From positions 1 through 21,682 of the IMG/VR virus record IMGVR_UViG_3300032308_001439: a DNA stretch of 21,682 nucleotides; one strand, written 5' to 3'. This document shows positions 1 to 21,505 of this stretch, piece by piece (the stretch's first letter is position 1; each line of letters starts with the position of its first letter). Made by a program: the position numbers and the translations under genes. Source of the stretch: a virus. The notes below the pieces were generated by a model. It was not told where the DNA came from, made no database searches, and worked only from the letters and a program-made list of their open reading frames with translations.

Positions 1-362
1 ATGATCGCTTGCAATGTAGCTGCACTGTTGTTGGAACCGTCAGTTGCTGTGTTGAAAGCACCTGTTGGATATGTAGCAACACTGAAGTTTGTAGCATTGC
101 CAGTGGCAGCTACTTGATAGATCGCTACTGTGGCTGTCTGCTGGATTGTCTGTAACAATGTCTGCAACATGCCGTTTACTTCGGCTTCGCCCGAAGGATC
201 TGCACCTAGGTCGCAACCAAAGAAGTCCAGTTTTGGACCCATGAAATTGGTTGGTGTACCTGCTGGTGTGTAGGTTGTTGTTGCGGCTAACTGAGGACCG
301 TTGAGGGTATCAGTTGCAAATACTGGTTGTGAACCACCACTGGTAATAGTTAATGCTGCCAT
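1..362 (-). CDS. Protein of unknown function, N-terminal 120 residues (truncated by window edge)
   Basis: The frame is open from an ATG at 362 to the window edge with no stop, so the 3' end is missing. The visible protein begins MAALTITSGGSQ and is rich in Thr, Ala, Asn and Gly, with few charged residues. That composition is common in phage virion or tail proteins, but I do not recognise a family. A strong Shine-Dalgarno AAGGAG (370-375) sits 7 bases before the ATG and fixes the start. A T4-late-like element (402-409) lies upstream. The gene follows the 623-aa gene on the same strand after a 68-base gap, so it has its own translation signal and perhaps its own promoter. A structural role is inferred from composition and neighbours only. 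Confidence 0.75.
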   Translation of the reverse strand, partial: MAALTITSGGSQPVFATDTLNGPQLAATTTYTPAGTPTNFMGPKLDFFGCDLGADPSGEAEVNGMLQTLLQTIQQTATVAIYQVAATGNATNFSVATYPTGAFNTATDGSNNSAATLQAI

Positions 363-430: not shown

Positions 431-2302
431 TTAGCCAGCCAAATTGGGGTTGTTTAAGATGCGATTTCCGGCTGTGAACCCAAATCTATTGACCAGTTTG
501 GCACGGCCTGCAGGTGTGGCAAGTACCCAGCCTTCGTGCCCAGGTTCCTGGCGATCCAGCTGATTCAGCATGTCGGTCTTGATTTCGTGCAACAACAAGA
601 ATGCTGTAAAGGCCGCTGTGATACCGTCCATGTTTGACCTGGGACTTTGCAGGTATTCTATGATGTTGGCGAACTTTCTAGGAGTAACATTGCTACGCAA
701 CCATTCGCCAAAGCCTGGCAATAAGTTTTCGTAGTCCCCAGTGATCCTGCTGTTGATGTAGCGTTTGCACAACTGTGGCAAGTCACTGAGTTGCGCGGCT
801 CTGAGTTCGCTGGGATTGAACAAGCCATCTATGGCACGCCCTTGACTGCGGGTGACTTGTTTCAGTTGTTTGACCAGCTGAGCATTGGGTGTGACATTCT
901 TGATATCTTTGACTGTGGGCTCAATTATCAGGAGTCCTGGCACTGGTTCAAGATTCACTTGACGTATGGGTTCGGCTGGCGCATCTACTTGTTTGTATCT
1001 GGTGTGTGCGGCTATGCCTACTTCGCTGGCACCGATGCGCTCGCCCAGTTTACTGGCCGCTGGAATTTTGTATTCTACAAAGTTGGGTTTGAACACATAG
1101 GCGCCCGACACTTCTGGCGGAGTTTCAGTGTACAACAAGTCACCTTGGATATAGCCCCGGAAGTTTTCTGGTGTGGCGGCACGCAACATGGGAAACAGTT
1201 TTTGATAGATGGCAATGAGATCGCCTCGTTCGCCACCTCGCTGATTCATGATTCTAGCAATTTGCTCTGGAGTGGTAGCCAATCCGTCGTAGCCTTTGGC
1301 CCCAAATCCGCTCTTGTCTGTGAGCACAAATTCGCCTGTGGGTTTGCGACCCCAGATGATGGCAGGTTTGCCGTCCCATTTGACTGTGGTTGTTTTTCTA
1401 GTGTCTTCTGCGGCATGTTGCATGATGGTCATGGCTTCTTCAATGCCACGGGTGCCACGTTCAAACACCAAGTCCTCCAGGTGTTCAATCCTGGCACTGG
1501 CCGCTTCCATGATAGGAACCATGCCTTGATTTACTATGCGGTCACGCAAGCGAGCCAAGAAATTGACTTCGGTATATAATTCAGTATTTTCAGCCACGGG
1601 TTGCTCAAACGGTATGCCTTGGCGAGCCATGTGTTCACGGAAGTCGGCCAGCTTGATGTCACGTTTGGGATCACGTTCTAGGGCAGACATGATGGTTTCC
1701 ACACTGGCCAGATCCGCACGGGTGGCCCGTTTGTTTAGCAACATCTTGGCCACAGCATCTGGATCATCTGAAATGATTGTGCTTTTCTCGTCGCGAGTGG
1801 CAATGCCAGCGATCTGATTCAATTTGTAGCCCAGGCTCTTGGCTATCGAATTCATGAGGACGTTGCGTTCGCGACCCTTGTATTGACTGTCAGCAGGCAT
1901 GGCACCCAACACGAACTTTGACCAAGGTACATTTTGCAAGAACATAAAGTCTGTTTGTACATAACCACGATCTGGTCTGCCAGTGATGGGTGTTAGGAAA
2001 TGCACTGCTGTGCCTGATTTGCGCACATAGTCTTCGGGCTTGAGTCCATGACTGGTTGCCCACTGTTTGAGTCTGTATTCCAATTGATCTTTGGTGACTT
2101 GGCCAGAATCAATGGCCAAGTCCAAGTCACCCGACGTGCTTTTGATTCCAGTGCTGCCCAAGGTATTGTTTTGCAGGTCCAGACCTGGCAACATTTCGTC
2201 CAACCAGGCCAAGGTAGGTTTTACATCAGTTTGATTGATGCGTTGTGTGAGTGGACGACCTTGGGCATCTTTGAATACATTGCCACCTTCTAGGATGTTC
2301 AT
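431..2302 (-). CDS. Double nucleotidyltransferase-like phage protein (pol-beta-type NTase plus ligase-like KWDG domain)
   Basis: This 623-aa protein shows two separate nucleotidyl-transfer motif sets. Residues 49-61 read GSTGIKSTSGDLD, the pol-beta-type GS...DxD signature with D59 and D61. The third acidic residue is probably D118 in VQTDFMF. In the second half, residues 308-311 read KWDG, like motif I (KxDG) of ATP-dependent DNA/RNA ligases and capping enzymes. It is followed by GFGAKGY (332-338), a GDLLY block near 387-391 that resembles motif III, and EYKIP near 410. From memory, T4-like marine phages carry proteins of this type (DUF6267-like) annotated as hypothetical. The ATG overlaps the stop of the upstream 510-aa gene as ATGA, so the two are probably translationally coupled. 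The substrate is unknown. A DNA/RNA repair or end-modifying role is an inference, and a virion-associated role is also possible given its structural neighbours. Confidence 0.8.
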   Translation of the reverse strand: MNILEGGNVFKDAQGRPLTQRINQTDVKPTLAWLDEMLPGLDLQNNTLGSTGIKSTSGDLDLAIDSGQVTKDQLEYRLKQWATSHGLKPEDYVRKSGTAVHFLTPITGRPDRGYVQTDFMFLQNVPWSKFVLGAMPADSQYKGRERNVLMNSIAKSLGYKLNQIAGIATRDEKSTIISDDPDAVAKMLLNKRATRADLASVETIMSALERDPKRDIKLADFREHMARQGIPFEQPVAENTELYTEVNFLARLRDRIVNQGMVPIMEAASARIEHLEDLVFERGTRGIEEAMTIMQHAAEDTRKTTTVKWDGKPAIIWGRKPTGEFVLTDKSGFGAKGYDGLATTPEQIARIMNQRGGERGDLIAIYQKLFPMLRAATPENFRGYIQGDLLYTETPPEVSGAYVFKPNFVEYKIPAASKLGERIGASEVGIAAHTRYKQVDAPAEPIRQVNLEPVPGLLIIEPTVKDIKNVTPNAQLVKQLKQVTRSQGRAIDGLFNPSELRAAQLSDLPQLCKRYINSRITGDYENLLPGFGEWLRSNVTPRKFANIIEYLQSPRSNMDGITAAFTAFLLLHEIKTDMLNQLDRQEPGHEGWVLATPAGRAKLVNRFGFTAGNRILNNPNLAG

Positions 2303-3831
2303 GCAGGTCTAAAGCCCATGTTCATAAGCAAGGCATCCACTGCCGGAACTCCGGTGCTTTTGATTGAATCATTGTTGTCTGTGTGATTTCTTTTAATTAG
2401 GTTGCCAGCAGTTAATACCTGTTTAGGCAAGTCACTTACTGTGGCTAACGTTTGTTTAATAGTGTCTTTAAGTTCTTCAGCAGTTTCCCCTCCGCCGGCC
2501 GCTGATTGTTGGCTGCCGGGACCAGTAGTTGTTCCTGCCGATTGAGTACCGCCGGCCTGTGCCGGTGCTTGTTGGGCAACTCCTGCTGCCAATGCTAGTT
2601 TGTTCCAGAGATCTTTTTGAGCACCAACACTATCGCTGGCTGGATCAACTATTTGTTTGATCAAGTTGTCAATCTGTTGAGCATTTTGTAAGCGGCTATA
2701 CTGCATGCCTGCTAATAGATTTTTTTGCACAAAGGACTTGAGTGCTTGCTCATAATCAGGCAATAATGTAGCCGGACTTAACCCTTCTTTTAATCCAGCC
2801 TTGCGAGCTGTTTGAAGTTGTTGAACAAAACTGTATAGCTTTGTGGCCTGTGGTTGTGTCAATTTAAAAATAGCTTGTTGCAATTCATTTGTGGTCATTT
2901 GTGGACCAGAGGCAAATTGTTTACCAGTGCGGTAAGCTGTCTGTGCCCTAGCTGGCATACCTGCGACAGCACCTGCAGTTGCGCCTGCGGCTGTGGCCAG
3001 TGCGCCTGGGGCGGCTTTGACCGCTTGACCAACCTTGGTAGCAGCCTTGCTGTATTCTTTACCAACTGCCTTGGCCAGAGCAGGTGCCTGTTGGATACCT
3101 TGTTTGGCCAACTGTCCTGCGGCGGCCAACCCAGGTTGAACTGCTTGATATGCTGCGGCCGCTGGACGACCAATGACTTGGTATCCAAGTTCTTTGGCGG
3201 CTCCGCCAACCGCTGTTGCGGCACCAGCTATTTTGTCCCCGGTTCGTGCTAGCCCCTTGGTAAAATTTTGAGCACCAGTTTTGACTGCTGTTGCTCCACG
3301 CTGTATGTCACGCCAGCCTAGTTCATTTAACTGGCCAGCAGGTGCAGATGCCTGTTCTGGTTTCTTCAATGCTGCCATGGTAGCAGCAGGACCCACCCGT
3401 TGCGATAGTATCTTGGCAATAGCATTTAACTGTTTGTTATCTAACGACTGAATTGTTGAATATAAAGTCTGTATATTGGTAGCAGAACTTTTAGCGTTGC
3501 TTTGAGTTCCAGGGTTGGCTTGCCCCTGCGCTTGAGCTTGCTGTGCTGTGGCGCCACCTTTACCCGGTTGGGTATATTGACCTCCCATGCTCTTGGCCCA
3601 CTGAACACTGTAGTTCTGCCAGGCACGATAGGCTTTGTCGGCCAACACACTGACTTTTTGATCGGCACGGCCTTGGTTATATCCCTGGGCAATGTTTTTA
3701 AAAGGGCTGGCGATTGCACTGCCTACATTTCTTACTCCAGACACAGTTTTACCTGCTGCTGTACCAAGCCCAGATCCTAATGCTTCATCTAGTTGGTTGG
3801 GTTTTTTTTGGGTTATTTCATGAATTTGCAT
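2299..3831 (-). CDS. Ala/Gln-rich low-complexity phage protein, probably virion-associated
   Basis: This is a 510-aa protein starting MQIHEI. It has no catalytic motif that I recognise. Residues 90-118 are Gln/Ala/Gly-rich. Residues 175-305 are an Ala/Gly/Lys-rich stretch with many short amphipathic segments (such as AKAVGKEYSKAATKVGQAVKAA) that would form helices. Residues 420-450 are another Gln/Ala/Gly/Thr linker. Between these are ordinary helical blocks at about 120-150, 312-345 and 352-412. The start at 3831 overlaps the end of the 82-aa gene by 14 bases, and the stop overlaps the next gene by four. The likely promoter is the late-like element at 4088-4095. Composition and neighbours suggest a structural, scaffold or neck/tail protein, but this is inference. 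Confidence 0.75.
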   Translation of the reverse strand: MQIHEITQKKPNQLDEALGSGLGTAAGKTVSGVRNVGSAIASPFKNIAQGYNQGRADQKVSVLADKAYRAWQNYSVQWAKSMGGQYTQPGKGGATAQQAQAQGQANPGTQSNAKSSATNIQTLYSTIQSLDNKQLNAIAKILSQRVGPAATMAALKKPEQASAPAGQLNELGWRDIQRGATAVKTGAQNFTKGLARTGDKIAGAATAVGGAAKELGYQVIGRPAAAAYQAVQPGLAAAGQLAKQGIQQAPALAKAVGKEYSKAATKVGQAVKAAPGALATAAGATAGAVAGMPARAQTAYRTGKQFASGPQMTTNELQQAIFKLTQPQATKLYSFVQQLQTARKAGLKEGLSPATLLPDYEQALKSFVQKNLLAGMQYSRLQNAQQIDNLIKQIVDPASDSVGAQKDLWNKLALAAGVAQQAPAQAGGTQSAGTTTGPGSQQSAAGGGETAEELKDTIKQTLATVSDLPKQVLTAGNLIKRNHTDNNDSIKSTGVPAVDALLMNMGFRPA

Positions 3832-4066
3832 CGGTTTTCCTTACTGTACGGGTAAACTTGCCAGGATCTCTGAGCTTGATTGCGTTGATCAATTTGCGTT
3901 GCAGATTCTCTGCTTGTTCTGGTGTGTAACTAGAGTCAATTTGCTCCAGCAAGCGTATGGCACTGGCGATGATGTTCGAAGCGCGATTTTCGATCACATG
4001 ACGTTGATCGCGCTCGGCGTACAAATTTTCTAATTCTTCTAACAGGCTTCGTGTTTTCTTTTGCAT
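3818..4066 (-). CDS. Small coiled-coil protein of unknown function (82 aa)
   Basis: The protein is predominantly helical and highly charged. The N-terminal half (residues 6-45) has a heptad-like pattern of Leu and Ile (LLEELENLY, ASAIRLLEQI) consistent with a coiled coil, and the C-terminus is basic. Its last 14 bases overlap the start of the 510-aa gene in another frame, which supports coupled expression. A late-promoter-like octamer lies 21 bases upstream of the ATG. I do not recognise a function. Marine T4-like phages often carry a similar short gene at this kind of position, from memory. Confidence 0.75.
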   Translation of the reverse strand: MQKKTRSLLEELENLYAERDQRHVIENRASNIIASAIRLLEQIDSSYTPEQAENLQRKLINAIKLRDPGKFTRTVRKTDANS

Positions 4067-7753: not shown

Positions 7754-8131
7754 ATGGCCAATGACATATTCAAACAACTAGCAGAAAAATATCCATTTAT
7801 AACGCTGTGTGTGTATGCCAGCACAGAATACGTGGGTATCATACAAAATCAAGATGACTCGATTACTACGATCTACGACTTTGGAAACATACAAGATATA
7901 ACAAGTAAACGGCGTTTTTTAGAATTGGCCAATGTTTGGTGGTGGGAATCAAACCGCAGCATACCCATAAACATATTCTTAAAAACTGAATGGGACCCGT
8001 TCCGTATGTGCTTGCGTACTTTTGTCAACAAGGACCTACAAATCTTGCACGGCCCAGTATGCAGTCTCAGTGAGATGGCCCGTAAAAAAAGCAAGAGAAA
8101 ATCAATTACCCTGGTTCGGCGTGTTAGTTAG
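7754..8131 (+). CDS. Small conserved T4-like phage protein of unknown function (125 aa)
   Basis: This is the only plus-strand gene in the first 17 kb. It is supported by an exact late-promoter octamer six bases before the ATG and by a balanced, protein-like composition. The segment ELANVWWWESNRSIPINIFL (56-75) is distinctive. The C-terminus is strongly basic (ARKKSKRKS). From memory, T4-like aquatic phages have proteins of similar length with a WWWESNR-type motif and a basic tail, of unknown function. The 3' end overlaps the 3' end of the convergent DnaE-like gene by 30 bases, so the two mRNAs are antisense there. The basic tail suggests nucleic-acid contact, but that is speculation. Confidence 0.8.
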   Translation: MANDIFKQLAEKYPFITLCVYASTEYVGIIQNQDDSITTIYDFGNIQDITSKRRFLELANVWWWESNRSIPINIFLKTEWDPFRMCLRTFVNKDLQILHGPVCSLSEMARKKSKRKSITLVRRVS

Positions 8132-8680
8132 ATTCATGTGCAGGGCTACCAGGGCCGCATAAGAAATCGCATGGCTCTGCTTGAACACAAATCCTCGGCT
8201 GCCGTCACCATCCCAAACAGATTCAAACACTTGGTCCCAGGGTTGATTTTGCAAGTGTGCCTTGCCAGGACGTATGATACTGATAAATGCTGCCATCCTA
8301 GGAATACTGTCGGGCCGCATTGATTTAAGCAACTCTGTGTAGTTGCCAATGTGCGCCAATTGACTAGCCCACTCTGGGTCAGTCCACAATCTGGACCATG
8401 GTGGATCCTGATCTAGAACTTGTGCATAATGCTCAGGACTTTGTATCAACTGATACACGGTCATGTTCAATAGATCTATTTTGAAGTAGCCCAGTTGTTC
8501 AGCTGTTTCATAGTCTATGGCCGCACAGGCATCAACAGGATCCACAGGTATATCTGTGACATACACTCCGCTGTTGTGACGTCGGGCCTGTCCTTGATGT
8601 AGTTGACGTGCCGGTGTGGCTTTGATCAACTTCAGTAACTGATCTCTATCGGCCAAGTCTATGTCAATGTCTGCACTCAT
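8102..8680 (-). CDS. Miniature DnaE-like protein (PolIII alpha palm/thumb remnants, 192 aa)
   Basis: Five short blocks match bacterial DNA polymerase III alpha (DnaE) in the same order. ADIDIDLADRD (3-13) matches the DFDVDF catalytic motif, with D6 and D8 at the E. coli D401/D403 positions. RHNSGVYV (34-41) matches KHAGGVVI. LGYFKIDLLNM (63-73) matches GLVKFDFLGL, with D69 at the D555 position. MRPDSIPRMAAFISIIRPG (121-139) matches the QPDCFEDMIALVALFRPG block. FKQSHAISYA (166-175) matches FNKSHSAAYA. DnaE is about 1,160 aa, and the PHP domain, most of the fingers, the clamp-binding motif and the OB fold are absent. The start is the ATG at 8680, sharing its A with the upstream stop (TAATG). 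A longer in-frame start at 8755 would overlap the zinc-finger gene by 76 bases. Whether it polymerises, binds primer-template or has another role is unknown. Confidence 0.8.
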   Translation of the reverse strand: MSADIDIDLADRDQLLKLIKATPARQLHQGQARRHNSGVYVTDIPVDPVDACAAIDYETAEQLGYFKIDLLNMTVYQLIQSPEHYAQVLDQDPPWSRLWTDPEWASQLAHIGNYTELLKSMRPDSIPRMAAFISIIRPGKAHLQNQPWDQVFESVWDGDGSRGFVFKQSHAISYAALVALHMNLTNTPNQGN

Positions 8681-9351
8681 TACCAACCTGCTTTCTGTAA
8701 CATTTCTCTCACATATTCCTGATCGGCCACATAGTCTCCAAACTTTTTCATCCACACTTCACTGTCTATGTAGGGCCATGTCATGGCGATCTGGCTGGCA
8801 TCCAGCTCGCCCAAGAATCGTTGTCCGCTTTCACAATTATACACTATCCAGGCGCTGATGCGACCTGTGGTCACAGCATAGACCATGGCATTGGTATTGC
8901 CGTAACGCAGGCAGTCTTCTGCAGGATTGCCTGTTTGCTCAGACCAATCTATAGCAAACTCCATGGCACGAGCCAAGGCATCATTCACATTCTCCACACG
9001 CAGGTAGTCTACCAGGTATTCGGTGTACATGGTATCTCGGCCCCAGTGATCAATCTTCTTGTTGTGTTTGAGCAACCATTCCATGAATCTGGCCGGATTC
9101 ACAGCCCGGGTATCCACACAGTATCTACCAAATTTCACAAAGGCACGATAGTACGGACTAGCCGCAAAGTCTTCAAAGGTTTTTAGTCGGGCACTGCCCT
9201 GTGACATTTCATAGAACTTCAAGTAGGCCTGCAGGCCCAGTTGTACTCCACGCTCGTCTTGTTCTTGGAATCGCCGTTTGGGCTCGCACATGTGTACGGC
9301 CAGGCTGGTTTCTTTGACAAAACTTCGTTTGCAATACCTGCATTCGTACAT
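8680..9351 (-). CDS. C2HC zinc-finger protein of unknown function (223 aa)
   Basis: The N-terminus reads CRYCKRSFVKETSLAVHMC, a C2H2-like zinc finger with ligands C4, C7, H20 and C22, so it is of the C2HC type. The remaining ~190 residues are mixed helix and strand with many Tyr and Trp and show no enzyme motif that I can name. Start and stop codons overlap neighbours by one base on both sides (TAATG at 9351 and at 8680). It is therefore translated together with the clamp-loader subunit upstream and the DnaE-like protein downstream. The context points to a nucleic-acid-binding partner in replication or late transcription. Similar zinc-finger genes occur in T4-like marine phages, from memory. 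Confidence 0.82.
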   Translation of the reverse strand: MYECRYCKRSFVKETSLAVHMCEPKRRFQEQDERGVQLGLQAYLKFYEMSQGSARLKTFEDFAASPYYRAFVKFGRYCVDTRAVNPARFMEWLLKHNKKIDHWGRDTMYTEYLVDYLRVENVNDALARAMEFAIDWSEQTGNPAEDCLRYGNTNAMVYAVTTGRISAWIVYNCESGQRFLGELDASQIAMTWPYIDSEVWMKKFGDYVADQEYVREMLQKAGW

Positions 9352-11790: not shown

Positions 11791-13293
11791 CTAGTAGGGT
11801 TGAATTGGTATTTTTGACAAAGAAACATATTTACGCGGAGACTGAACAAATTTGGTCACCGCTTGTTCGTACAGTTGCATGGCCAACGCACCGTTCCACA
11901 ACGGCCATTTGTATTTCATGGCATGTTCCATGAGCTCTATGTGTCTACTTATTCTGGCCAAGAAATCATAGTTTGGATTTTGTGGATCGACCCAGGATCT
12001 TAAATTCATAGCACCCGTATGATCAGTCACAAATAGCCATTTGTTGTCTATGGCCATTTCTGCCAGTTTGGTTTCGGGCAGTATGCCTAAAATATTTAAG
12101 GTTTCTATACCTTGTATGGTCCCGTCGGCCACAAATCGTTGCCAGCGTGGAAACATGGTCAAGGTCTCAGCATGATCTTCCTTGGTTTCTGACACATATC
12201 CTGTAAACATCAAAAACAACACCCGTATTTGATTTGCGCTGAAATTTTCCAAATAGTATTCTGTGTCATCATTGGTAAATGGTTTTCCTAGTTCTTGGCG
12301 CACACGATCACTGCCAGATTCCAGTCCTACGAACAGCGTATCACAACCAGATTTCCTCAACATTTCAAAATGATCTCGAGGTGTTGTTGCACGCGATCTA
12401 ATTATATATTGACCCGACCATGATATAGGACGATCAAAATGATAGGCGGCCAGTGAGTTGCACATGTCATTGAAAGCTTTGAAACTGCCATTGATCAGAC
12501 TGTCGGCAAAATAATACCTGGTAATACCGTGTGTCTCATAGTGATGTATGATTTCCTTGGCTATGTTCTTTCCTGACCTGTAACGATATTTGGGACTAGT
12601 CTTGGCTACATCACAAAAGGTACAACTTCTTACACATCCTCTGCTGCCAATTATGGCCAACTCTTGTTGGTCCAAGGTACTGTAATTGTTTAAATTATAA
12701 TAGCTATAGTCTGGCCAAGGTTGCTTGTCCAAATCATCAATTTGTTTAAAACTGTAGTTGCCAATGCCTGGACCATGCCCTTGTTTCAAATACATAGGAA
12801 TGCTTTCTTCAGCCTCGCCGGTAATAAATTCATCAATTATGCCGGCGGCCTTGAAGTCTTCGGCGAAGGCCAATTGACTGTGACTGTTTGTTATATAGAC
12901 TAATCCTGCACCGCCTACGATTATTTTTGCCCGGCTGTGTTTTCGCAATTGCGGTAAAAATATTTGTCCAAAATTTTGTGCCAAATATGAAAACAAACTC
13001 ACAAACACATAATCAAACTGCGTTGAATGCAAATTTTGAAGATGTTGATCTATAAATTTGCCCAACAGGATTGTTTGATCCGATGAGAAGCTGGGACTGT
13101 GTTCATAAAACACATCATCAAAATATCCAGCAATCTTGTTCTGCTGTTTTAAAAATTGATCTAGCTCAAATTGCAAATCCACAACCATGCAATCATGCCC
13201 CTGGCTTGCACAAACAGCAGCAATAATTGCCCCTGACAAGCTGGGCCGAGATTTGTCCAGGGGTGGCAGATTATAGATTAAGGTTTTTATCAT
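11791..13293 (-). CDS. B12-binding-type radical SAM protein
   Basis: The 500-aa product has the two-domain layout of cobalamin-binding radical SAM enzymes. Residues 1-170 resemble a B12-binding Rossmann domain (LIYNLPPLDKSRPSLSGAIIAA at the start, VFVSLF near 97, IIVGGAGLVY near 124, ITGEAEESIP near 157). Residues 210 onward contain GSRGCVRSCTFC with the C220-x3-C224-x2-C227 cluster ligands. A GLESGSDRVRQELGK block follows near 320. The canonical DxHxxG cobalamin ligand motif is not seen, so B12 may be bound without the His ligand or not at all. The ATG at 13293 overlaps the previous gene by 23 bases. The substrate is unknown; modification of a sugar, lipid, nucleotide or peptide are all possible. 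The glycan genes nearby make a sugar-related role a reasonable guess, nothing more. Confidence 0.88.
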   Translation of the reverse strand: MIKTLIYNLPPLDKSRPSLSGAIIAAVCASQGHDCMVVDLQFELDQFLKQQNKIAGYFDDVFYEHSPSFSSDQTILLGKFIDQHLQNLHSTQFDYVFVSLFSYLAQNFGQIFLPQLRKHSRAKIIVGGAGLVYITNSHSQLAFAEDFKAAGIIDEFITGEAEESIPMYLKQGHGPGIGNYSFKQIDDLDKQPWPDYSYYNLNNYSTLDQQELAIIGSRGCVRSCTFCDVAKTSPKYRYRSGKNIAKEIIHHYETHGITRYYFADSLINGSFKAFNDMCNSLAAYHFDRPISWSGQYIIRSRATTPRDHFEMLRKSGCDTLFVGLESGSDRVRQELGKPFTNDDTEYYLENFSANQIRVLFLMFTGYVSETKEDHAETLTMFPRWQRFVADGTIQGIETLNILGILPETKLAEMAIDNKWLFVTDHTGAMNLRSWVDPQNPNYDFLARISRHIELMEHAMKYKWPLWNGALAMQLYEQAVTKFVQSPRKYVSLSKIPIQPY

Positions 13294-15851: not shown

Positions 15852-16676
15852 CTATTTCCAGTGTTCTAAGATCAGTGGATCTTGTATGCTGTCTGGTTTG
15901 GGGTGTCCGTGAAAAATCAAAATGCTGTTGTTTTTTGCCAGTTGTGTGCCTGTGCCCGGACGACGATATATCTTTTTGTGATGATCATAGCCGCCATCAA
16001 ATGCTTGCCAACGCCAGCTGGCCACTCGTTCTACGTCAAAAAATCTACGCCGATCGGGCAAAAAACAATCTGAAATATAGTCCTGATCTCCGCGATATCT
16101 TTTTAAAATCTGGGCAAAATCTTTTCTAACAAATTCTTCATAGATATGACCATACTGACGAGTGTCCCAACGCATGACGCTGGAATTGATATTGTAGCTG
16201 GTCGGTCTCCAGAGATATTTAAAATCACGCACCGCCCAAAAATGTTGCAGATTCTGCTGCCAAATCCAGTCAATATTTTGTGTGATCACCACATCAAGAT
16301 CAAAATACAACAAAGGCCCTGCATGGTGATCAGTGTTGAACAATTGCATCTTGTACCACCAGGATTTTTTAGGACCATTGATGTTCCAGTCTGTGAGTCC
16401 ATGTTTGATAAAATTCTCCGGCACTGGTCGATCTGTTTCCGTGTACACATGCAATCTTACGCCAGGTGTGATGTGTCGACTCAGCATGCTATACAAACGT
16501 TCCACATAGTTCCAACTATAGACCGATCCATGTATGACACAGGCACAATCAATTGGACCTGATTCCGGCAATGGCAATTGATTGCGTTCAGCATTCAGCG
16601 ATTGTTTCAGAGCTCGATTTGCCGCAGGATCATGCGCGGCTGCCAGTTTAAGAGCTCGTTTGGTAGCCTTATCCAT
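15852..16676 (-). CDS. Glycosyltransferase-like protein with DxD motif (274 aa)
   Basis: The first 35 residues are Ala/Lys-rich and probably helical. A GT-A-type fold follows. CACVIHGSVYSWNYVERLYSML (44-65) looks like the sugar-nucleotide-binding start. KSWWYKMQLF (104-113) and LLYFDLDVVI (122-131) carry the metal-binding DxD at D126/D128. QDYISD, near 197-202, may supply a second acidic site. It resembles GT8-like and phage 'glycosyltransferase' families. The gene overlaps the upstream gene by eight bases. It probably transfers a sugar to a phage- or host-surface glycan; donor and acceptor are unknown. Confidence 0.78.
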   Translation of the reverse strand: MDKATKRALKLAAAHDPAANRALKQSLNAERNQLPLPESGPIDCACVIHGSVYSWNYVERLYSMLSRHITPGVRLHVYTETDRPVPENFIKHGLTDWNINGPKKSWWYKMQLFNTDHHAGPLLYFDLDVVITQNIDWIWQQNLQHFWAVRDFKYLWRPTSYNINSSVMRWDTRQYGHIYEEFVRKDFAQILKRYRGDQDYISDCFLPDRRRFFDVERVASWRWQAFDGGYDHHKKIYRRPGTGTQLAKNNSILIFHGHPKPDSIQDPLILEHWK

Positions 16677-17532
16677 GATCGCTTGGCAAGGCAGAGGACA
16701 AGCGAGTCAACCAACGACCTTGTGCTATTTCTTCAACTGTGTATTCGGTATGGCAAATTTCAATCAGCCACTGATCGCGATCCACTGCATAGGGCTGATC
16801 AATGTTTTGTATTTGTATGCTCACAGGATGAGCCAGACTGCTGACGTCCACAATGGGTCTGGTTCCTGCAAGTGCGGCCTGTATGCCAGGGCCTGAATTG
16901 TGATTAACGATGGCATGGCAGTCAAAGGCCAAGTTGTAGCTGTCATAGGTGTTGACTATTTTGACAGGTTGTTCTATGATCACATCCTTGGGCAAGTGTA
17001 CCAATCCGGCCCATCCCAATGCACTTCTAGGATGTGGTCTGACCACAATAGGACGATCAGTGACTGTGCGTAGTCGTTCTACTTGTTGGATGACCCAACC
17101 CTCCATGCTGACGAGACCTACCACCTGCAGACTGCGTGCATGTTGTGCGGCTATCACAATCCTGGGATTGCGGGTCAAATTGAGGGCCAGGCTTATACCT
17201 AATTTTCTTGGCCGGTCCAAGTCTAAATTTTCTGTGTGTCCATAGTAACCGTTGGCCGTGATGGAGTTTACAGCTATCTTCCAGGTTTCCCCGCGATACA
17301 AGGCCCCTATGTCTATCACAATGACTGGCCGGCCCAGGCTTCTATAGTGACTCCACACTGCCTGATTAGCGGCCATGCGGCCCGACCACAACACACTCCA
17401 AATCACAGCTGCGTCGGCATCCAGGCTGTTTTCTACACAGACATGTCCAGCACGTCGCAGGCTGGCGATCACTGCGGTCATTACCGGAGCACTGTTTTGA
17501 GCACATTGATTTGGAAAGTAGGCCACACGCAT
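16669..17532 (-). CDS. Capsule-synthesis-like (GT-B type) protein (287 aa)
   Basis: Starts MRVAYFPNQC. Residues 163-170 (VVRPHPRS) and 209-228 (VNHNSGPGIQAALAGTRPIV) resemble the nucleotide-sugar site of KpsS/KpsC-like capsule proteins and other GT-B glycosyltransferases. In these a RPHP-type motif and an Asn/Ser-Ser/Gly-x-x-x-Glu/Gln-Ala-x-x-x-Gly-x-Pro-hydrophobic block are conserved. The N-terminal half has a Rossmann-like pattern (AAVIWSVLWSG, VIVIDIGALYRG). The ATG at 17532 is separated from the divergent plus-strand start by only 18 bases containing a palindrome; no ribosome site is present. Function is inferred from motif and neighbours. Confidence 0.68.
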   Translation of the reverse strand: MRVAYFPNQCAQNSAPVMTAVIASLRRAGHVCVENSLDADAAVIWSVLWSGRMAANQAVWSHYRSLGRPVIVIDIGALYRGETWKIAVNSITANGYYGHTENLDLDRPRKLGISLALNLTRNPRIVIAAQHARSLQVVGLVSMEGWVIQQVERLRTVTDRPIVVRPHPRSALGWAGLVHLPKDVIIEQPVKIVNTYDSYNLAFDCHAIVNHNSGPGIQAALAGTRPIVDVSSLAHPVSIQIQNIDQPYAVDRDQWLIEICHTEYTVEEIAQGRWLTRLSSALPSDHG

Positions 17533-17534
17533 AA

Positions 17535-17550
17535 GGTTAAATATTTAACC
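17535..17550. promoter_or_regulatory. Perfect 16-base palindrome between divergent glycan operons
   Basis: GGTTAAATATTTAACC is identical on both strands. It contains a TAAATA late-promoter-like core in each direction and fills the 18-base gap between ATG 17532 (minus) and ATG 17551 (plus). It ends directly at the plus ATG and two bases from the minus ATG. It could be a symmetric bidirectional late promoter or an operator. Neither start has a Shine-Dalgarno site. Confidence 0.65.
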
Positions 17551-18339
17551 ATGAAACTACCACCACTGCTAGGAAACCTAGACCAAAATCAATTTTTTAT
17601 ATATGCAGCCGCCGATACTGTATATTTTGACTTGCATGCTCGCCCGTTGATCAAAAGTATTATTGCTAATACACCAACTTACGGAGTGCATATGCACATC
17701 TACAACCCAAGGCAAGATCAAATTGATTTTTGTCGCAGTTTCCCAATGGTAACTTGTACCTATGAACATCTTGACAACGCGGAGTTTAAAAAGGTAACCG
17801 ACTCTTGGCTAGTTAGAAATGATTTTAGCAACGATCGACAAAAACAAATGCATAAAAAAGGGCAAACGCAAGGCCCAGCCGAATTGTTAAAATTGGTTCA
17901 GCAAACTTATTATGCCTGTGTTAGATTTGTCAGACTGGCAGAATTACTACGTCCGGGTCAGCGGTGTCTGAGCATAGATGTAGATGGACTGGTGCGTGGT
18001 CAATTTATGGATCAACTGGGTACCCAAGACTTTTACCTGTATGAAAAACCCAAGGATGGCACACATCTAGCCGGGGCTATCCTGTTCAATGGTACTGCAG
18101 GCTCACATAGCTTTCTACAAGAATATGCCAAACAGTTACGAAATAGTATAGGCCAGGATGATTTGTACTGGTTTCTGGACCAGATCGTTCTGGATCAACT
18201 GGTACCACAATATCACAAAGGACTCCTGCCCATGAGCTATATTGACTGGGCCATGCGCAACGAAAGTGCCATATGGTCAGCCAAAGGCAAACGCAAAGAG
18301 TTAGACCTATTCAAACAAGAACAAAGAAAGTATCTATGA
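17551..18339 (+). CDS. Glycosyltransferase-like protein with DxD motif (262 aa)
   Basis: Starts MKLPPLLGNLDQNQ. The first part (FIYAAADTVYF, residues 16-26; PLIKSIIANTPTYGVHMHIYNP, 32-53) has the GT-A shape in which a set of strands binds the sugar nucleotide. CLSIDVDGLVRG (139-150) carries the DxD at D143/D145. A conserved-looking HLAGAILFNG block follows. It has no signal peptide or membrane helix. The ATG at 17551 directly follows the palindrome; an upstream open frame from 17236 overlaps the divergent gene and was rejected as the start. The stop overlaps the next gene as ATGA, so it is first in a coupled six-gene run. Confidence 0.75.
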   Translation: MKLPPLLGNLDQNQFFIYAAADTVYFDLHARPLIKSIIANTPTYGVHMHIYNPRQDQIDFCRSFPMVTCTYEHLDNAEFKKVTDSWLVRNDFSNDRQKQMHKKGQTQGPAELLKLVQQTYYACVRFVRLAELLRPGQRCLSIDVDGLVRGQFMDQLGTQDFYLYEKPKDGTHLAGAILFNGTAGSHSFLQEYAKQLRNSIGQDDLYWFLDQIVLDQLVPQYHKGLLPMSYIDWAMRNESAIWSAKGKRKELDLFKQEQRKYL

Positions 18340-19106
18340 TATCAATTGTAATGAGTTACTTTAACCGCCTTGATCAGTTAAGGTACACCCTTAAAACCAT
18401 TGGTATGAGTCAAGTTAAAGATTTAGAGATCATCATTGCCGAGGACTTTTGTGATCCCGGGGAACAATTGCATAACATACAAGCAGAGTTTGCGCACCTA
18501 GATATAAAAGTTATACGCATGTCAGAAGGTCGGCCCGGCAAAGATTACTGCAATCCTTGTGTGCCGTATAACACAGCGTTGCGTGCTAGCCGTGGTGATC
18601 TAATCATTATACAAAATCCTGAATGTTGTCACATGGGAGATATACTACAATACACCAAAAATAATTTAACCGATGCAAATTATCTTACCTTCCATTGTTA
18701 TGCGGCAACCAAAGCCGAAACAAGAGTTATGCAGTCTGGTGAACCATTGCCCATGTTCACAGACAAAAAATCTCGTTGGTACAATCATGTGGTTGAGCGT
18801 CCGTACGCCTATCATTTTACTTCGGCTATTACTAGAGGAAATCTTGTCAAGTTAAACGGGTTTGACGAACAGTTTGCACAGGGACAAGACATGGACGATG
18901 TGGAATTTATCTATCGAGTCAAGGCACTAGGACTAGAATTAAAGTTTGTAGAGGATCCCTGGGTGGTGCATCAATATCACCGCAAGACTTATGACAATCC
19001 ACACAATCCGCCGGTGACTGTAAACAACAGAGAACTATGGGCCAGTATCAAAGACAATCTGCAAGTGCGAGCCAACAACAACGGTAATGATATATGTGGT
19101 ATTTGA
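18336..19106 (+). CDS. Family 2-like glycosyltransferase (256 aa)
   Basis: Starts MISIVMSYFNRLDQLRYTL, the usual beginning of GT2 enzymes. IIIAEDFCDPGE (32-43) contributes the first acidic site. PYNTALRASRGDLIIIQNPEC (77-97) is typical of the family, with the QNPE segment in place of a classical DxD. LNGFDEQFAQGQDMDDVEFIYRV near 192-214 matches the GT2 block that binds the acceptor and contains the likely catalytic ED-type acids. It ends in WVVHQYH. The start overlaps the previous stop (ATGA). An upstream in-frame start at 18273 would overlap more and is unlikely. Sugar and acceptor are unknown. Confidence 0.85.
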   Translation: MISIVMSYFNRLDQLRYTLKTIGMSQVKDLEIIIAEDFCDPGEQLHNIQAEFAHLDIKVIRMSEGRPGKDYCNPCVPYNTALRASRGDLIIIQNPECCHMGDILQYTKNNLTDANYLTFHCYAATKAETRVMQSGEPLPMFTDKKSRWYNHVVERPYAYHFTSAITRGNLVKLNGFDEQFAQGQDMDDVEFIYRVKALGLELKFVEDPWVVHQYHRKTYDNPHNPPVTVNNRELWASIKDNLQVRANNNGNDICGI

Positions 19107-19930
19107 CACAGATACCCAAGGTAGCACACTTCTATTGGGGCGGGGGTCCGCTTTCCTACTTGAGATTTTTATCAGTTCAAAGTTTTAAAAAACAAAATCC
19201 AAATTGGCAAGTAAAAGTTCATCAACCTGTGACCAATAGTCAAGCACCCAGTACTTGGATCAACAATATCAAACAAGACTTCCGCAATCTGATTAGCACT
19301 CTTGATGTTGCTGTTGTTGAACATGATTTTGACAGTTACGGATTCAGTAATCAGGCGCATGAAGTTCACAAGTCTGATTTTCTAAGATGGCGTTTGTTGG
19401 CCACGGAAGGTGGTGTATGGTCAGACATAGACATCTTTTATATCAAACCCATGGAATGCTTAGAAGAAAATAATCTGCAACATGCCAATATTGATGTTGC
19501 ATTGTGTCCACTAAAACCGCCGCACAAACACACAGTTGGATTCATGCTTGCTTCCAAACACAGTGCCTTTTACCAGTACATGAGTCGAGTGGCCTTGTCA
19601 AACTACAACAAGGATGTGTATCAATGCATGGGCAGTGATTTGATCAATGGACAATTTGAAAGTTTTGAAAGTTTTGGCCGCCAATTTCCCAACAATCAAT
19701 TTGTATTTTTAAACAAAAAAAGTGTGTATGCGATTACCAGCAAAACCATTGATTATTTTTATCAACCAGTTGACCCTGCATTGAACAAAAAATTTAACGG
19801 ACCACAGATTATAGGATATCACTGGTTTGGTGGGCACCCACAGTCTCAAGATTTTGAAAACAATTTACAGCCAGACACAATAAATGATTACAATCATTTT
19901 TTAGCTCGGGCAATACAGGAACAATTATGA
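19094..19930 (+). CDS. GT32-like glycosyltransferase (278 aa)
   Basis: IPKVAHFYWGG (7-17) matches the IPKIIHQ-W start of OCH1/GT32-type sugar transferases. HKSDFLRWRLLATEGGVWSD (92-111) with D111-I-D113 gives the DxD 'Gly_transf_sug' signature. GYHWFGGH near 251-258 may be the C-terminal His/Trp block. The ATG at 19094 overlaps the preceding gene by 13 bases in another frame, and no start further in would keep the IPK motif. It should act in the cytoplasm on a growing glycan together with the neighbouring transferases. Confidence 0.85.
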   Translation: MWYLTQIPKVAHFYWGGGPLSYLRFLSVQSFKKQNPNWQVKVHQPVTNSQAPSTWINNIKQDFRNLISTLDVAVVEHDFDSYGFSNQAHEVHKSDFLRWRLLATEGGVWSDIDIFYIKPMECLEENNLQHANIDVALCPLKPPHKHTVGFMLASKHSAFYQYMSRVALSNYNKDVYQCMGSDLINGQFESFESFGRQFPNNQFVFLNKKSVYAITSKTIDYFYQPVDPALNKKFNGPQIIGYHWFGGHPQSQDFENNLQPDTINDYNHFLARAIQEQL

Positions 19931-20454
19931 AACACAAAGTAAAAGGAAAACGAGCTTTTAGCAACGATGATTTGGTTGCATACTTACAGTCCCAAGTGGT
20001 TGCTGGATCCACCTTGTTGGATCTAGGGTGCGGGCCAAAAATGTACAGCAATCCCTTGCGTGAACAATGCAGCCGCATACTCACAGTTGATGCGTGGGCC
20101 TGGGTTGAGCCAGACATTGTGGCTGACCTGGAAACCACTCCAATTGCAAACATTACTCCAGATCGCTGGGACTATGTGCTTATGTTGGACTTTATCGAGC
20201 ATCTGACCAAAGAGGCTGGATTGAGCTTGATTGAACAAGTCAAACAAATAACCAATCGACGAATATTTCTACTGACCCCAATGGAAGAAATTTGGACAGA
20301 AAATCATGAGAATGTAGACAATCCAGAACTTTGGTGTCATGGCAATGAATATGATCTACACAAGAGCCTGTGGTCACCAGAAGACTTTGCAGGCTTTGTT
20401 CGTGTTGACATTCGTGGATTCCACGATTACTATGTAGGATACTATGAAGCGTAA
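19927..20454 (+). CDS. Class I SAM-dependent methyltransferase (175 aa)
   Basis: Motif I is LLDLGCGPK (30-38). An Asp at 55 (TVDAW) is the probable ribose-binding acid. MLDFIEHL (86-93) is the motif-IV-like block seen in small-molecule methyltransferases. The enzyme is short and has no added domains. The start is coupled to the GT32 stop (ATGA) with an AGGA ribosome site six bases upstream. In a glycan cassette a methyltransferase of this size typically O- or N-methylates a sugar; the true substrate cannot be told. Confidence 0.85.
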   Translation: MKHKVKGKRAFSNDDLVAYLQSQVVAGSTLLDLGCGPKMYSNPLREQCSRILTVDAWAWVEPDIVADLETTPIANITPDRWDYVLMLDFIEHLTKEAGLSLIEQVKQITNRRIFLLTPMEEIWTENHENVDNPELWCHGNEYDLHKSLWSPEDFAGFVRVDIRGFHDYYVGYYEA

Positions 20455-21505
20455 AATACTGACTATACTAGGCACCAGGCCAGAAATAATTAGACTTAGC
20501 CGAGTAATACCTAAATTAGATCAAGTGGCTGACCATCGTGTATTGCACACTGGACAGAATTATGATCCTACCCTCAATGACATATTCTTTGAAGAATTAC
20601 AATTACGTAGACCCGATGCAGTGCTGGCCAGTCGTGGCACTATTGCTGAACAATTGGCCACAACGTTTGTAGGAGTAGAAAAGTATTGCCAAGAATTCCA
20701 ACCCGATGCTGTTCTAGTACTAGGTGATACCAACTCTGGATTAGCGGCTGTTGTATGTGAACGCATGGGCATTCCAGTGTATCATATGGAAGCTGGAAAT
20801 CGTTGTTATGATTTGAGTGTGCCCGAAGAAAAGAATCGCAGAATAATTGATCATGTGTCCAGCGTCAACTTGCCTTACACTGGCTACAGTAGAGAAAACT
20901 TGCTGCGTGAAGGCCTGCCAAACAACAAAATATTTGTTACCGGTAATCCCATCCGAGAAGTGCTAGATTACTACAGTGGAGCAATACAGCACAGCACTAT
21001 CCTTGAACGGCTGGGCCTCGCTCCATATCAATACATTGTGGCCACTGCACACAGAGCAGAAAATGTAGACGATCCTGTTCGCTTAGCAAATATACTAGAA
21101 GCATTCGAAACAATCAGTCAAGACTTGCCCATAGTGTTCAGTTGTCATCCAAAGACCGAACAACGCATGACTAGGAAATTAAACAGCCGCATCATTGTGT
21201 CCAAGCCCATGGGCTTTTTTGACTGGGTCAATTTGGAACGCAACAGTAGATTGGCCATTAGCGACTCGGGCACTGTGCAGGAAGAAATGTGCCTGTTCCG
21301 ACGACCAACAATAACTATACGAGCAACCACAGAACGACCAGAAACTGTCATGTGCGGATCAAACATTGTGACCGGTCTCGAAACTGCGGATATTGTAGCA
21401 GGTTACCAGCAGGCACTGACACTAGGCCCGTGGACTGTGCCCGAAGAGTACACCAGGGCCAATGTCAGTGACGTGGTTGTAAATATCATATTAGGAAACA
21501 TGTAA
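20444..21505 (+). CDS. UDP-sugar 2-epimerase, WecB/FnlC-like
   Basis: A 353-aa non-hydrolysing UDP-GlcNAc 2-epimerase family protein. It interconverts UDP-N-acetylamino sugars at C2 through a 2-acetamidoglucal intermediate and provides an activated sugar for surface glycans. Visible motifs are GTRPEIIRL (10-18), HTGQNYD (35-41), GDTNS with D95 (94-98), HMEAGNR with E116 (114-120), PEEKNRRIIDH, HRAEN (203-207) and SDSGTVQEE (273-281). HTGQNYD and EAGNRCYDLSVPEE are closer to FnlC/CapG, which act on UDP-6-deoxytalose or fucosamine type sugars, than to E. coli WecB; this distinction is from memory. The start overlaps the methyltransferase by 11 bases and has a weak AGGA upstream. Confidence 0.93.
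   Translation: MKRKILTILGTRPEIIRLSRVIPKLDQVADHRVLHTGQNYDPTLNDIFFEELQLRRPDAVLASRGTIAEQLATTFVGVEKYCQEFQPDAVLVLGDTNSGLAAVVCERMGIPVYHMEAGNRCYDLSVPEEKNRRIIDHVSSVNLPYTGYSRENLLREGLPNNKIFVTGNPIREVLDYYSGAIQHSTILERLGLAPYQYIVATAHRAENVDDPVRLANILEAFETISQDLPIVFSCHPKTEQRMTRKLNSRIIVSKPMGFFDWVNLERNSRLAISDSGTVQEEMCLFRRPTITIRATTERPETVMCGSNIVTGLETADIVAGYQQALTLGPWTVPEEYTRANVSDVVVNIILGNM

What the first reader, a model, noticed from the sequence alone, without database searches (positions are those of the whole stretch)
431..2302. One protein with two different nucleotidyl-transfer motif sets
The N-terminal GS...GDLD plus VQTDF triad is pol-beta-like. A KWDG ligase/capping motif I, with motif-III- and IV-like blocks, follows 250 residues later. 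Two such domains in one virion-block gene suggest an unusual end-processing, tRNA- or DNA-repair, or capping activity.
Basis: partly seen in the sequence, partly recalled or inferred. Interest (0 to 1): 0.7.

Follow-up and report, generated by a model that had tools for sequence, protein, structure and literature searches.

The report
Phage head protein with polymerase–ligase domains
A widespread but unstudied protein of large water-dwelling phages joins a small repair-type DNA polymerase fold to a ligase-type fold, and it carries signs of being packed in the virus head, so it may be a ready-made nucleic-acid repair tool that enters the cell with the viral DNA.

Summary
ORF 431-2302 (-) encodes 623 aa with GS..GDLD (D59, D61), VQTDF (D118) and KWDG (K308); the three Asp and KWDG are invariant in 80 IMG/VR homologues.

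AlphaFold2 gives two separate folds. Residues 3-202 match only family X DNA polymerases among the top 50 rows (pol beta/lambda palm plus thumb, Z 10.7); 6 of 19 members also weakly hit Pfam DNA_pol_B_thumb. Residues 272-613 are Pfam DUF6267 (unknown function): all top 50 structural rows are RNA or DNA ligases (Z 5.8-7.6), and ligase motif order (KWDG, GDLLY, EGWV, AKLVNR) is kept in relatives only 26-29% identical. No OB fold or motif VI follows, which argues against capping.

In jumbo phages the two halves are separate genes, adjacent or two genes apart; the polymerase half is in PA5oct's mass-spectrometry virion list. All 77 readable N-termini read [L/I/V]-x-E|GG, close to the T4 prohead-protease site, and a 344-kb relative encodes that protease.

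Best reading: a head-packaged protein with minimal polymerase-X and ligase domains, delivered to repair DNA (or RNA) at infection. Predicted folds and conservation are shown; packaging is strongly suggested; activity and substrate are inferred.

The parts
431..2302 (-). 623-aa CDS: PolX-like NTase domain fused to DUF6267 ligase-like domain
   Evidence: ORF; at least 594 related stretches in IMG/VR, best 80 kept; two-domain model, pLDDT 84
2285..2296 (-). residues 3-6, [L/I/V]-x-E|G: putative prohead-protease site after E5
   Evidence: 77 of 77 readable homologues; T4 gp21 motif L/I-x-E (PMC9026906)
1604..2302 (-). residues 1-233, family-X polymerase-like domain (palm and thumb)
   Evidence: VIA Z 10.7 to pol beta, 165 aligned, rmsd 3.3; Pfam DNA_pol_B_thumb in 6 of 19 members, sub-threshold
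2120..2158 (-). residues 49-61, GSTG...SGDLD with catalytic D59 and D61
1946..1960 (-). residues 115-119, VQTDF with third carboxylate D118
1493..1603 (-). residues 234-270, low-confidence linker between the domains
   Evidence: pLDDT under 50
452..1489 (-). residues 272-617, DUF6267, ligase-superfamily nucleotidyltransferase core
   Evidence: Pfam PF19782 E 1.1e-36 over 272-613; separate model with only ligases in the top 50 rows
1370..1381 (-). residues 308-311, KWDG, motif I (putative adenylated lysine K308)
   Evidence: invariant in A1 and A3
1130..1147 (-). residues 386-391, QGDLLY, motif-III-like (D388)
   Evidence: G387, D388, L389, Y391 invariant
548..883 (-). residues 474-585, helical insert between the beta core and motif IV
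   Evidence: DSSP of the models
524..535 (-). residues 590-593, EGWV, motif IV
   Evidence: E, G and V invariant
485..502 (-). residues 601-606, AKLVNR, motif-V-like (K602; second lysine absent)
   Evidence: K602, V604, R606 invariant
2299..3831 (-). 510-aa upstream gene, end overlapping this gene's start by 4 nt; hypervariable, starts MQIHEIT...QLDE|A
3818..4066 (-). 82-aa conserved block protein, PHROG 'virion structural protein'
   Evidence: phrog_11854 E 1.5e-17; PA5oct gp259 E 6.6e-19
1..362 (-). start of the next block gene (MAALTITSGGSQPVFATDTLNGP..), cut by the window end
   Evidence: conserved at this place in relatives

Best explanation
The protein is a head-packaged, two-domain nucleic-acid repair enzyme. 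The N-terminal domain is a minimal family-X polymerase (palm and thumb only) that would add nucleotides at a gap or 3' end with D59, D61 and D118. The C-terminal DUF6267 domain is a ligase-superfamily nucleotidyltransferase that would adenylate itself on K308 and seal the strand. Made as MNILE-GGNVF..., it would enter the prohead, lose its first five residues to the prohead protease and be injected with the genome, so that gap filling and sealing can start before phage genes are expressed. Shown here: both predicted folds, conservation of the catalytic residues, the N-terminal motif, the gene order. Supported by published mass spectrometry of relatives: packaging. Inferred: catalysis, a DNA rather than RNA substrate, timing.
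For: N domain: top 50 VIA rows are all family X polymerases (Z 10.7); DNA_pol_B_thumb is the only Pfam model hit by more than one of 19 members; catalytic Asp invariant. C domain: top 50 VIA rows are all RNA or DNA ligases, motif order kept in relatives of 26-29% identity. Pairing: separate neighbouring ligase-like and NTase genes in Atu_ph07, Phosso and PA5oct. Packaging: [L/I/V]xE|GG in 77 of 77, S77 prohead protease in the 344-kb relative, jumbo homologues start at the predicted mature end, PA5oct NTase in the MS list, partner cytidyltransferases of cyanophage DUF6267 carry T4-like targeting peptides (77 of 77) and were found in virions (PMC3037559; PMC10665884).
Against: No sequence match to solved PolX or ligase structures. 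C-domain structural scores (Z up to 7.6) are each below the safe level of 8. No OB fold or C-terminal domain, and one lysine in motif V, so strand joining may need a partner or may not occur. The 5-residue pre-peptide is shorter than T4's 10-19, and the motif start was not enriched among MS-detected PA5oct proteins. The PA5oct MS list also holds cytosolic enzymes.
Confidence: 0.45

Rival explanations
1. RNA repair rather than DNA repair: the C domain is an RNA ligase of the Rnl type and the N domain adds nucleotides to RNA 3' ends. Packaged in the head, it would restore tRNAs cut by host anticodon nucleases at the start of infection, as T4 Pnkp and Rnl1 do later in infection (T4 role from established knowledge).
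For: RNA ligases head the C-domain list (Naegleria RNA ligase 7.6, TbREL1 6.8, Trl1 6.6, T4 Rnl1 6.6, against 6.2 for DNA ligase 1). The separate ligase-like genes in Atu_ph07 and Phosso match Pfam RNA_ligase, weakly. No OB fold after motif V. A canonical DNA ligase is encoded separately in 5 of 6 relatives.
Against: The N domain matches DNA polymerases of family X with a thumb, not tRNA NTases. No kinase/phosphatase partner for tRNA ends was identified in the block. Z differences of about 1 are near a tie.
Confidence: 0.27
2. The protein acts inside the infected cell as a replication-associated enzyme and is not packaged; the N-terminal [LI]xE-GG motif and the mass-spectrometry hits are coincidence or carry-over.
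For: Upstream neighbours are replication genes (DnaB helicase, primase, UvsW). The PA5oct MS list includes cytosolic enzymes such as ribonucleotide reductase. The motif test in PA5oct was not significant.
Against: [L/I/V]xE|GG in 77 of 77 with a free middle residue and variable length before it; mature-like starts in jumbo phages; block families annotated as virion proteins in PA5oct.
Confidence: 0.15
3. The domains are nucleotidyltransferases that modify a protein or small molecule (for example AMPylation or nucleotide-cofactor work), not nucleic-acid polymerase and ligase; the protein would be an injected effector that reprograms the host.
For: DUF6267 pairs in cyanophages with a HIGH-type cytidyltransferase/NMNAT-like domain, whose proposed role in virions is NAD metabolism (PMC9602691). 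No OB fold, atypical motif V. T4 injects the ADP-ribosyltransferase Alt.
Against: PolX-type thumb in the N domain and ligase-only structural matches for the C domain.
Confidence: 0.1

Closest known systems
Pfam DUF6267 (PF19782) / phrog_455 of T4-like cyanophages (Kyanoviridae; T4-GC 71 in S-SM1)
   Same: The C-terminal half is a member: E 1.1e-36, same KWDG, GDLLY, EG.V and K.V.R motifs
   Different: Cyanophage members stand alone or are joined to a HIGH-type cytidyltransferase; here the partner is a PolX-like domain at the N-terminus
Family X DNA polymerases (pol beta, pol lambda; minimal form as in ASFV PolX)
   Same: Palm and thumb fold, GS...GDxD plus third Asp
   Different: No lyase domain, about 12-16% identity, no sequence-level match above cut-off
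Covalent nucleotidyltransferase ligases (Naegleria RNA ligase, T4 Rnl1, DNA ligase 1)
   Same: Motif I KxDG, motif IV EGxV and overall core
   Different: Large helical insert before motif IV, single lysine in motif V, no OB fold after motif V
PA5oct gp253 and gp256, Atu_ph07 AUZ94877 and AUZ94878, Phosso 447 and 446 (jumbo phages)
   Same: Homologous NTase (E 4e-25 to 6e-13 with the N-domain profile) near a ligase-like gene with KxDG and EGxV
   Different: Two genes in the order ligase then NTase; here one polypeptide in the order NTase then ligase
T4 internal head proteins (IPI-III, Alt) with capsid-targeting peptides
   Same: N-terminal L/I-x-E cleavage motif; a gp21-type S77 protease in the 344-kb relative
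   Different: Pre-peptide of 5 residues against 10-19 in T4; the cargo is a predicted nucleotidyltransferase pair

Membership tests
DUF6267 (PF19782) | Pfam profile match above the curated cut-off | tested here: met
   127.5 bits against a cut-off of 27, residues 272-613
Family X DNA polymerase | Pol-beta-type palm with GS motif and three catalytic carboxylates | tested here: met
   Fold; G49/S50, D59, D61, D118 conserved
Family X DNA polymerase | Thumb subdomain of the PolX type | tested here: met
   Structural alignment of model 3-202 to pol beta 102-335; DNA_pol_B_thumb in 6 of 19 members, below cut-off
Family X DNA polymerase | Sequence-profile match above the curated cut-off (palm or thumb) | tested here: not met
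   Best E 0.025; so it is filed as PolX-like by fold, not as an established member
Family X DNA polymerase | Template-directed nucleotide insertion | not testable with these tools
   needs enzymology
Covalent nucleotidyltransferase (ligase/capping) superfamily | Motif I KxDG in the nucleotidyltransferase core | tested here: met
   K308-W-D-G invariant; fold rows all ligases
Covalent nucleotidyltransferase (ligase/capping) superfamily | Motifs III and IV in order after motif I | tested here: met
   GDLLY and EGWV invariant; motif III has D where E is usual
Covalent nucleotidyltransferase (ligase/capping) superfamily | Motif V with two lysines (KxK) | tested here: inconclusive
   AKLVNR: first lysine invariant, second position not lysine
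DNA ligase or mRNA capping enzyme | C-terminal OB fold with motif VI after motif V | tested here: not met
   Only about 17 residues, mostly helical, follow motif V
T4-type internal head protein | N-terminal peptide ending in L/I-x-E cut by the prohead protease | tested here: inconclusive
   Motif in 77 of 77, protease in a relative; cleavage itself not observed
T4-type internal head protein | Presence in the mature virion | not testable with these tools
   Only the homologue gp253 of PA5oct is annotated ESI-MS/MS

The most novel reading that the evidence does not exclude
A phage carries a one-polypeptide gap-filling-and-sealing machine (PolX fused to a ligase) inside its head and injects it with the genome; and DUF6267, present in many T4-like cyanophages, is an unrecognised virion ligase that pairs with different nucleotidyltransferases in different phages.
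Probability: 0.33. Interest if true: 0.8.

Novelty: new variant of a known kind. Interest (0 to 1): 0.62.

Why it matters
DUF6267 is a family of unknown function matched in 442 phage records, mostly cyanophages. A ligase reading gives those genes a testable activity. A PolX-ligase pair packaged with the genome would mean that some large phages bring repair enzymes into the cell, something usually discussed for large eukaryotic DNA viruses. It would also explain a conserved gene block listed so far only as hypothetical or virion proteins.

Tried and rejected
(1) DUF6267 as the phage's missing replicative ligase: rejected for this group, since 5 of 6 relatives carry a separate PF01068 ligase. 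(2) mRNA capping: no OB fold or motif VI after motif V. (3) Cellular relatives: a pattern scan of genome contigs confirmed none. (4) More NTase-only relatives in IMG/VR with the Phosso protein: none confirmed. (5) PDB profile searches by sequence: no useful hit for either half. In the VIA lists only PolX appears for the N half and only ligases for the C half; families not listed are not excluded. (6) PHROG and NCBIfam searches for the N domain: nothing relevant. (7) Enrichment of an M-x-[LIV]-x-E start among MS-detected PA5oct proteins in a 50-kb stretch: 2 of 27 against 1 of 38, p 0.37, not significant. (8) Literature: no paper in the held library mentions DUF6267; searches for a viral PolX-ligase system gave nothing relevant. 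(9) Promoter/terminator scan: counts only modestly above shuffles, not informative. (10) S-CREM2: in the 18-kb stretch read around its MS-detected cytidyltransferase no gene is annotated as DUF6267; not searched further.

Full report
What is there. The minus-strand ORF at 431-2302 encodes 623 aa. The gene belongs to a large viral family: an IMG/VR scan found at least 594 related stretches and kept the best 80, 61-97% identical and mostly full length. The three aspartates and KWDG are fully conserved in them. A pattern scan of bacterial and archaeal species genomes confirmed no relative.

N-terminal domain. AlphaFold2 with 31 sequences gave pLDDT 84. Residues 3-202 match family X DNA polymerases only among the top 50 rows: pol beta at Z 10.7, 165 residues, rmsd 3.3, over palm and thumb (Foldseek). 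Sequence evidence is weak but points the same way: of 24,736 Pfam models, DNA_pol_B_thumb is the only one hit by more than one of 19 N-domain members (6 of 19, best E 0.025, below its cut-off). D59 and D61 lie at the strand 60-65 and D118 in the strand 114-122, as expected for a pol-beta palm. Adding distant jumbo-phage homologues (26-33% identity) leaves 15 invariant columns; these include D59, D61, D118, G143 and R146. There is no lyase domain, so this resembles a minimal palm-thumb PolX such as that of ASFV (from memory).

C-terminal domain. Residues 272-613 are Pfam DUF6267 (E 1.1e-36), of unknown function and found mainly in T4-like cyanophages. I modelled this half separately with 41 sequences, including Kyanoviridae members of 26-29% identity (pLDDT 83). 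The top 50 VIA rows are all ligases: Naegleria RNA ligase Z 7.6, TbREL1 6.8, Trl1 6.6, T4 Rnl1 6.6, human DNA ligase 1 6.2, T4 Rnl2 6.0. No row passes the safe level of Z 8; the case rests on the uniform list together with the motifs. Conserved across the whole family are H.ED..F, KWDG, GDLLY, F.PN...Y, EG.V and K.V.R. Deviations from textbook ligases are a helical insert (474-585) before motif IV, one lysine in motif V, and no OB fold or motif VI after it. That argues against a capping enzyme.

The halves occur as neighbouring genes elsewhere. In Agrobacterium phage Atu_ph07 and Sinorhizobium phage Phosso the NTase is a separate gene, overlapped by the end of an upstream gene with KLDG...EGVV...K. 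That gene matches Pfam RNA_ligase weakly (E 0.002 and 0.085), and the Atu_ph07 product is named RNA ligase in BFVD. In Pseudomonas phage PA5oct, gp256 has KIDG and EGYV...VKIVDK, and a 446-aa PA5oct protein (the length of gp256) matches the fused model in BFVD (E 2.5e-5); gp256 lies two genes from the NTase gp253. The order is ligase then NTase there, and NTase then ligase here, so the pairing has survived rearrangement. In cyanophages DUF6267 is instead next to, or joined with, a HIGH-type cytidyltransferase.

Packaging. All 77 homologues with a readable N-terminus have [L/I/V]-x-E immediately before GGN, with a free middle residue and variable length before it. T4 gp21 cuts after L/I-x-E and removes short targeting peptides from internal head proteins (PMC9026906). 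The three jumbo-phage homologues start at M-GG or M-SG, the predicted mature end. The 344-kb relative encodes an S77 prohead protease (E 5.9e-24). The upstream gene (2299-3831), whose end overlaps this gene's start by 4 nt, starts MQIHE(I/L)T and has a further [LIV]xE near its N-terminus in most relatives. The block is conserved. Three of its families, the 82-aa protein, the NTase and a 281-aa protein, occur in the same order in PA5oct, where the NTase and the 281-aa family are marked ESI-MS/MS. A caution: that list also holds ribonucleotide reductase and thymidylate synthase. In Kyanoviridae, the cytidyltransferase next to DUF6267 starts MRFIQFIREA or similar in 77 of 77, close to T4's capsid-targeting peptide (recalled), and such cytidyltransferases were detected in S-SM1 and S-CREM2 virions (PMC3037559; PMC10665884).

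How it most likely works. Enclosed with the genome and injected, the protein would fill gaps (PolX half) and seal them (ligase half) as infection begins. It is probably not the replicative ligase, because 5 of 6 relatives have a separate PF01068 ligase. An RNA substrate is the main rival, because RNA ligases head the C-domain list. My rough step probabilities are: PolX-type fold 0.85, ligase-type fold 0.8, packaged in the head 0.65, nucleic-acid repair as function 0.7, DNA rather than RNA 0.6 given repair.

Novelty. Each half belongs to a known superfamily. The combination, its position in a head-protein block and the ligase reading of DUF6267 were not found in the papers searched. That is limited evidence, since the library holds openly licensed papers only.

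Noticed in passing
2299-3831 (-): The gene directly upstream is hypervariable in length (about 215-517 aa in relatives) and Ala/Gly/Gln-rich, yet always starts MQIHE(I/L)T; a candidate head-interior protein.
   Followed up: partly
L085-L165, gene after DUF6267: Kyanoviridae cytidyltransferases start MRFIQFIREA or similar in 77 of 77, resembling T4's capsid-targeting peptide; this would explain why they are found in virions.
   Followed up: yes
8102-8755 (-): A 217-aa gene (about 190 aa in relatives) is called DNA polymerase by phrog_11778 but matches no Pfam family; its DIDID..D segment reminded me of the C-family (Pol III alpha) palm.
   Followed up: no
L079 13195-13882; L001 11456-11839; L063 13121-13812: Relatives carry genes that by eye look like the iron-sulfur scaffold proteins IscU and IscA, downstream of this block.
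   Followed up: no
L063 1867-2526; L027 4720-5430: Different extra genes sit between primase, helicase and the 82-aa gene in different relatives; some resemble GIY-YIG homing endonucleases by eye, so this stretch may be an insertion hotspot.
   Followed up: no
15852-21505: A run of genes that by eye look like glycosyltransferases, a methyltransferase and a sugar-nucleotide epimerase suggests glycan synthesis by the phage.
   Followed up: no
11791-13293 (-): A 500-aa radical SAM protein (Pfam Radical_SAM E 5e-13) is encoded among the replication genes.
   Followed up: no
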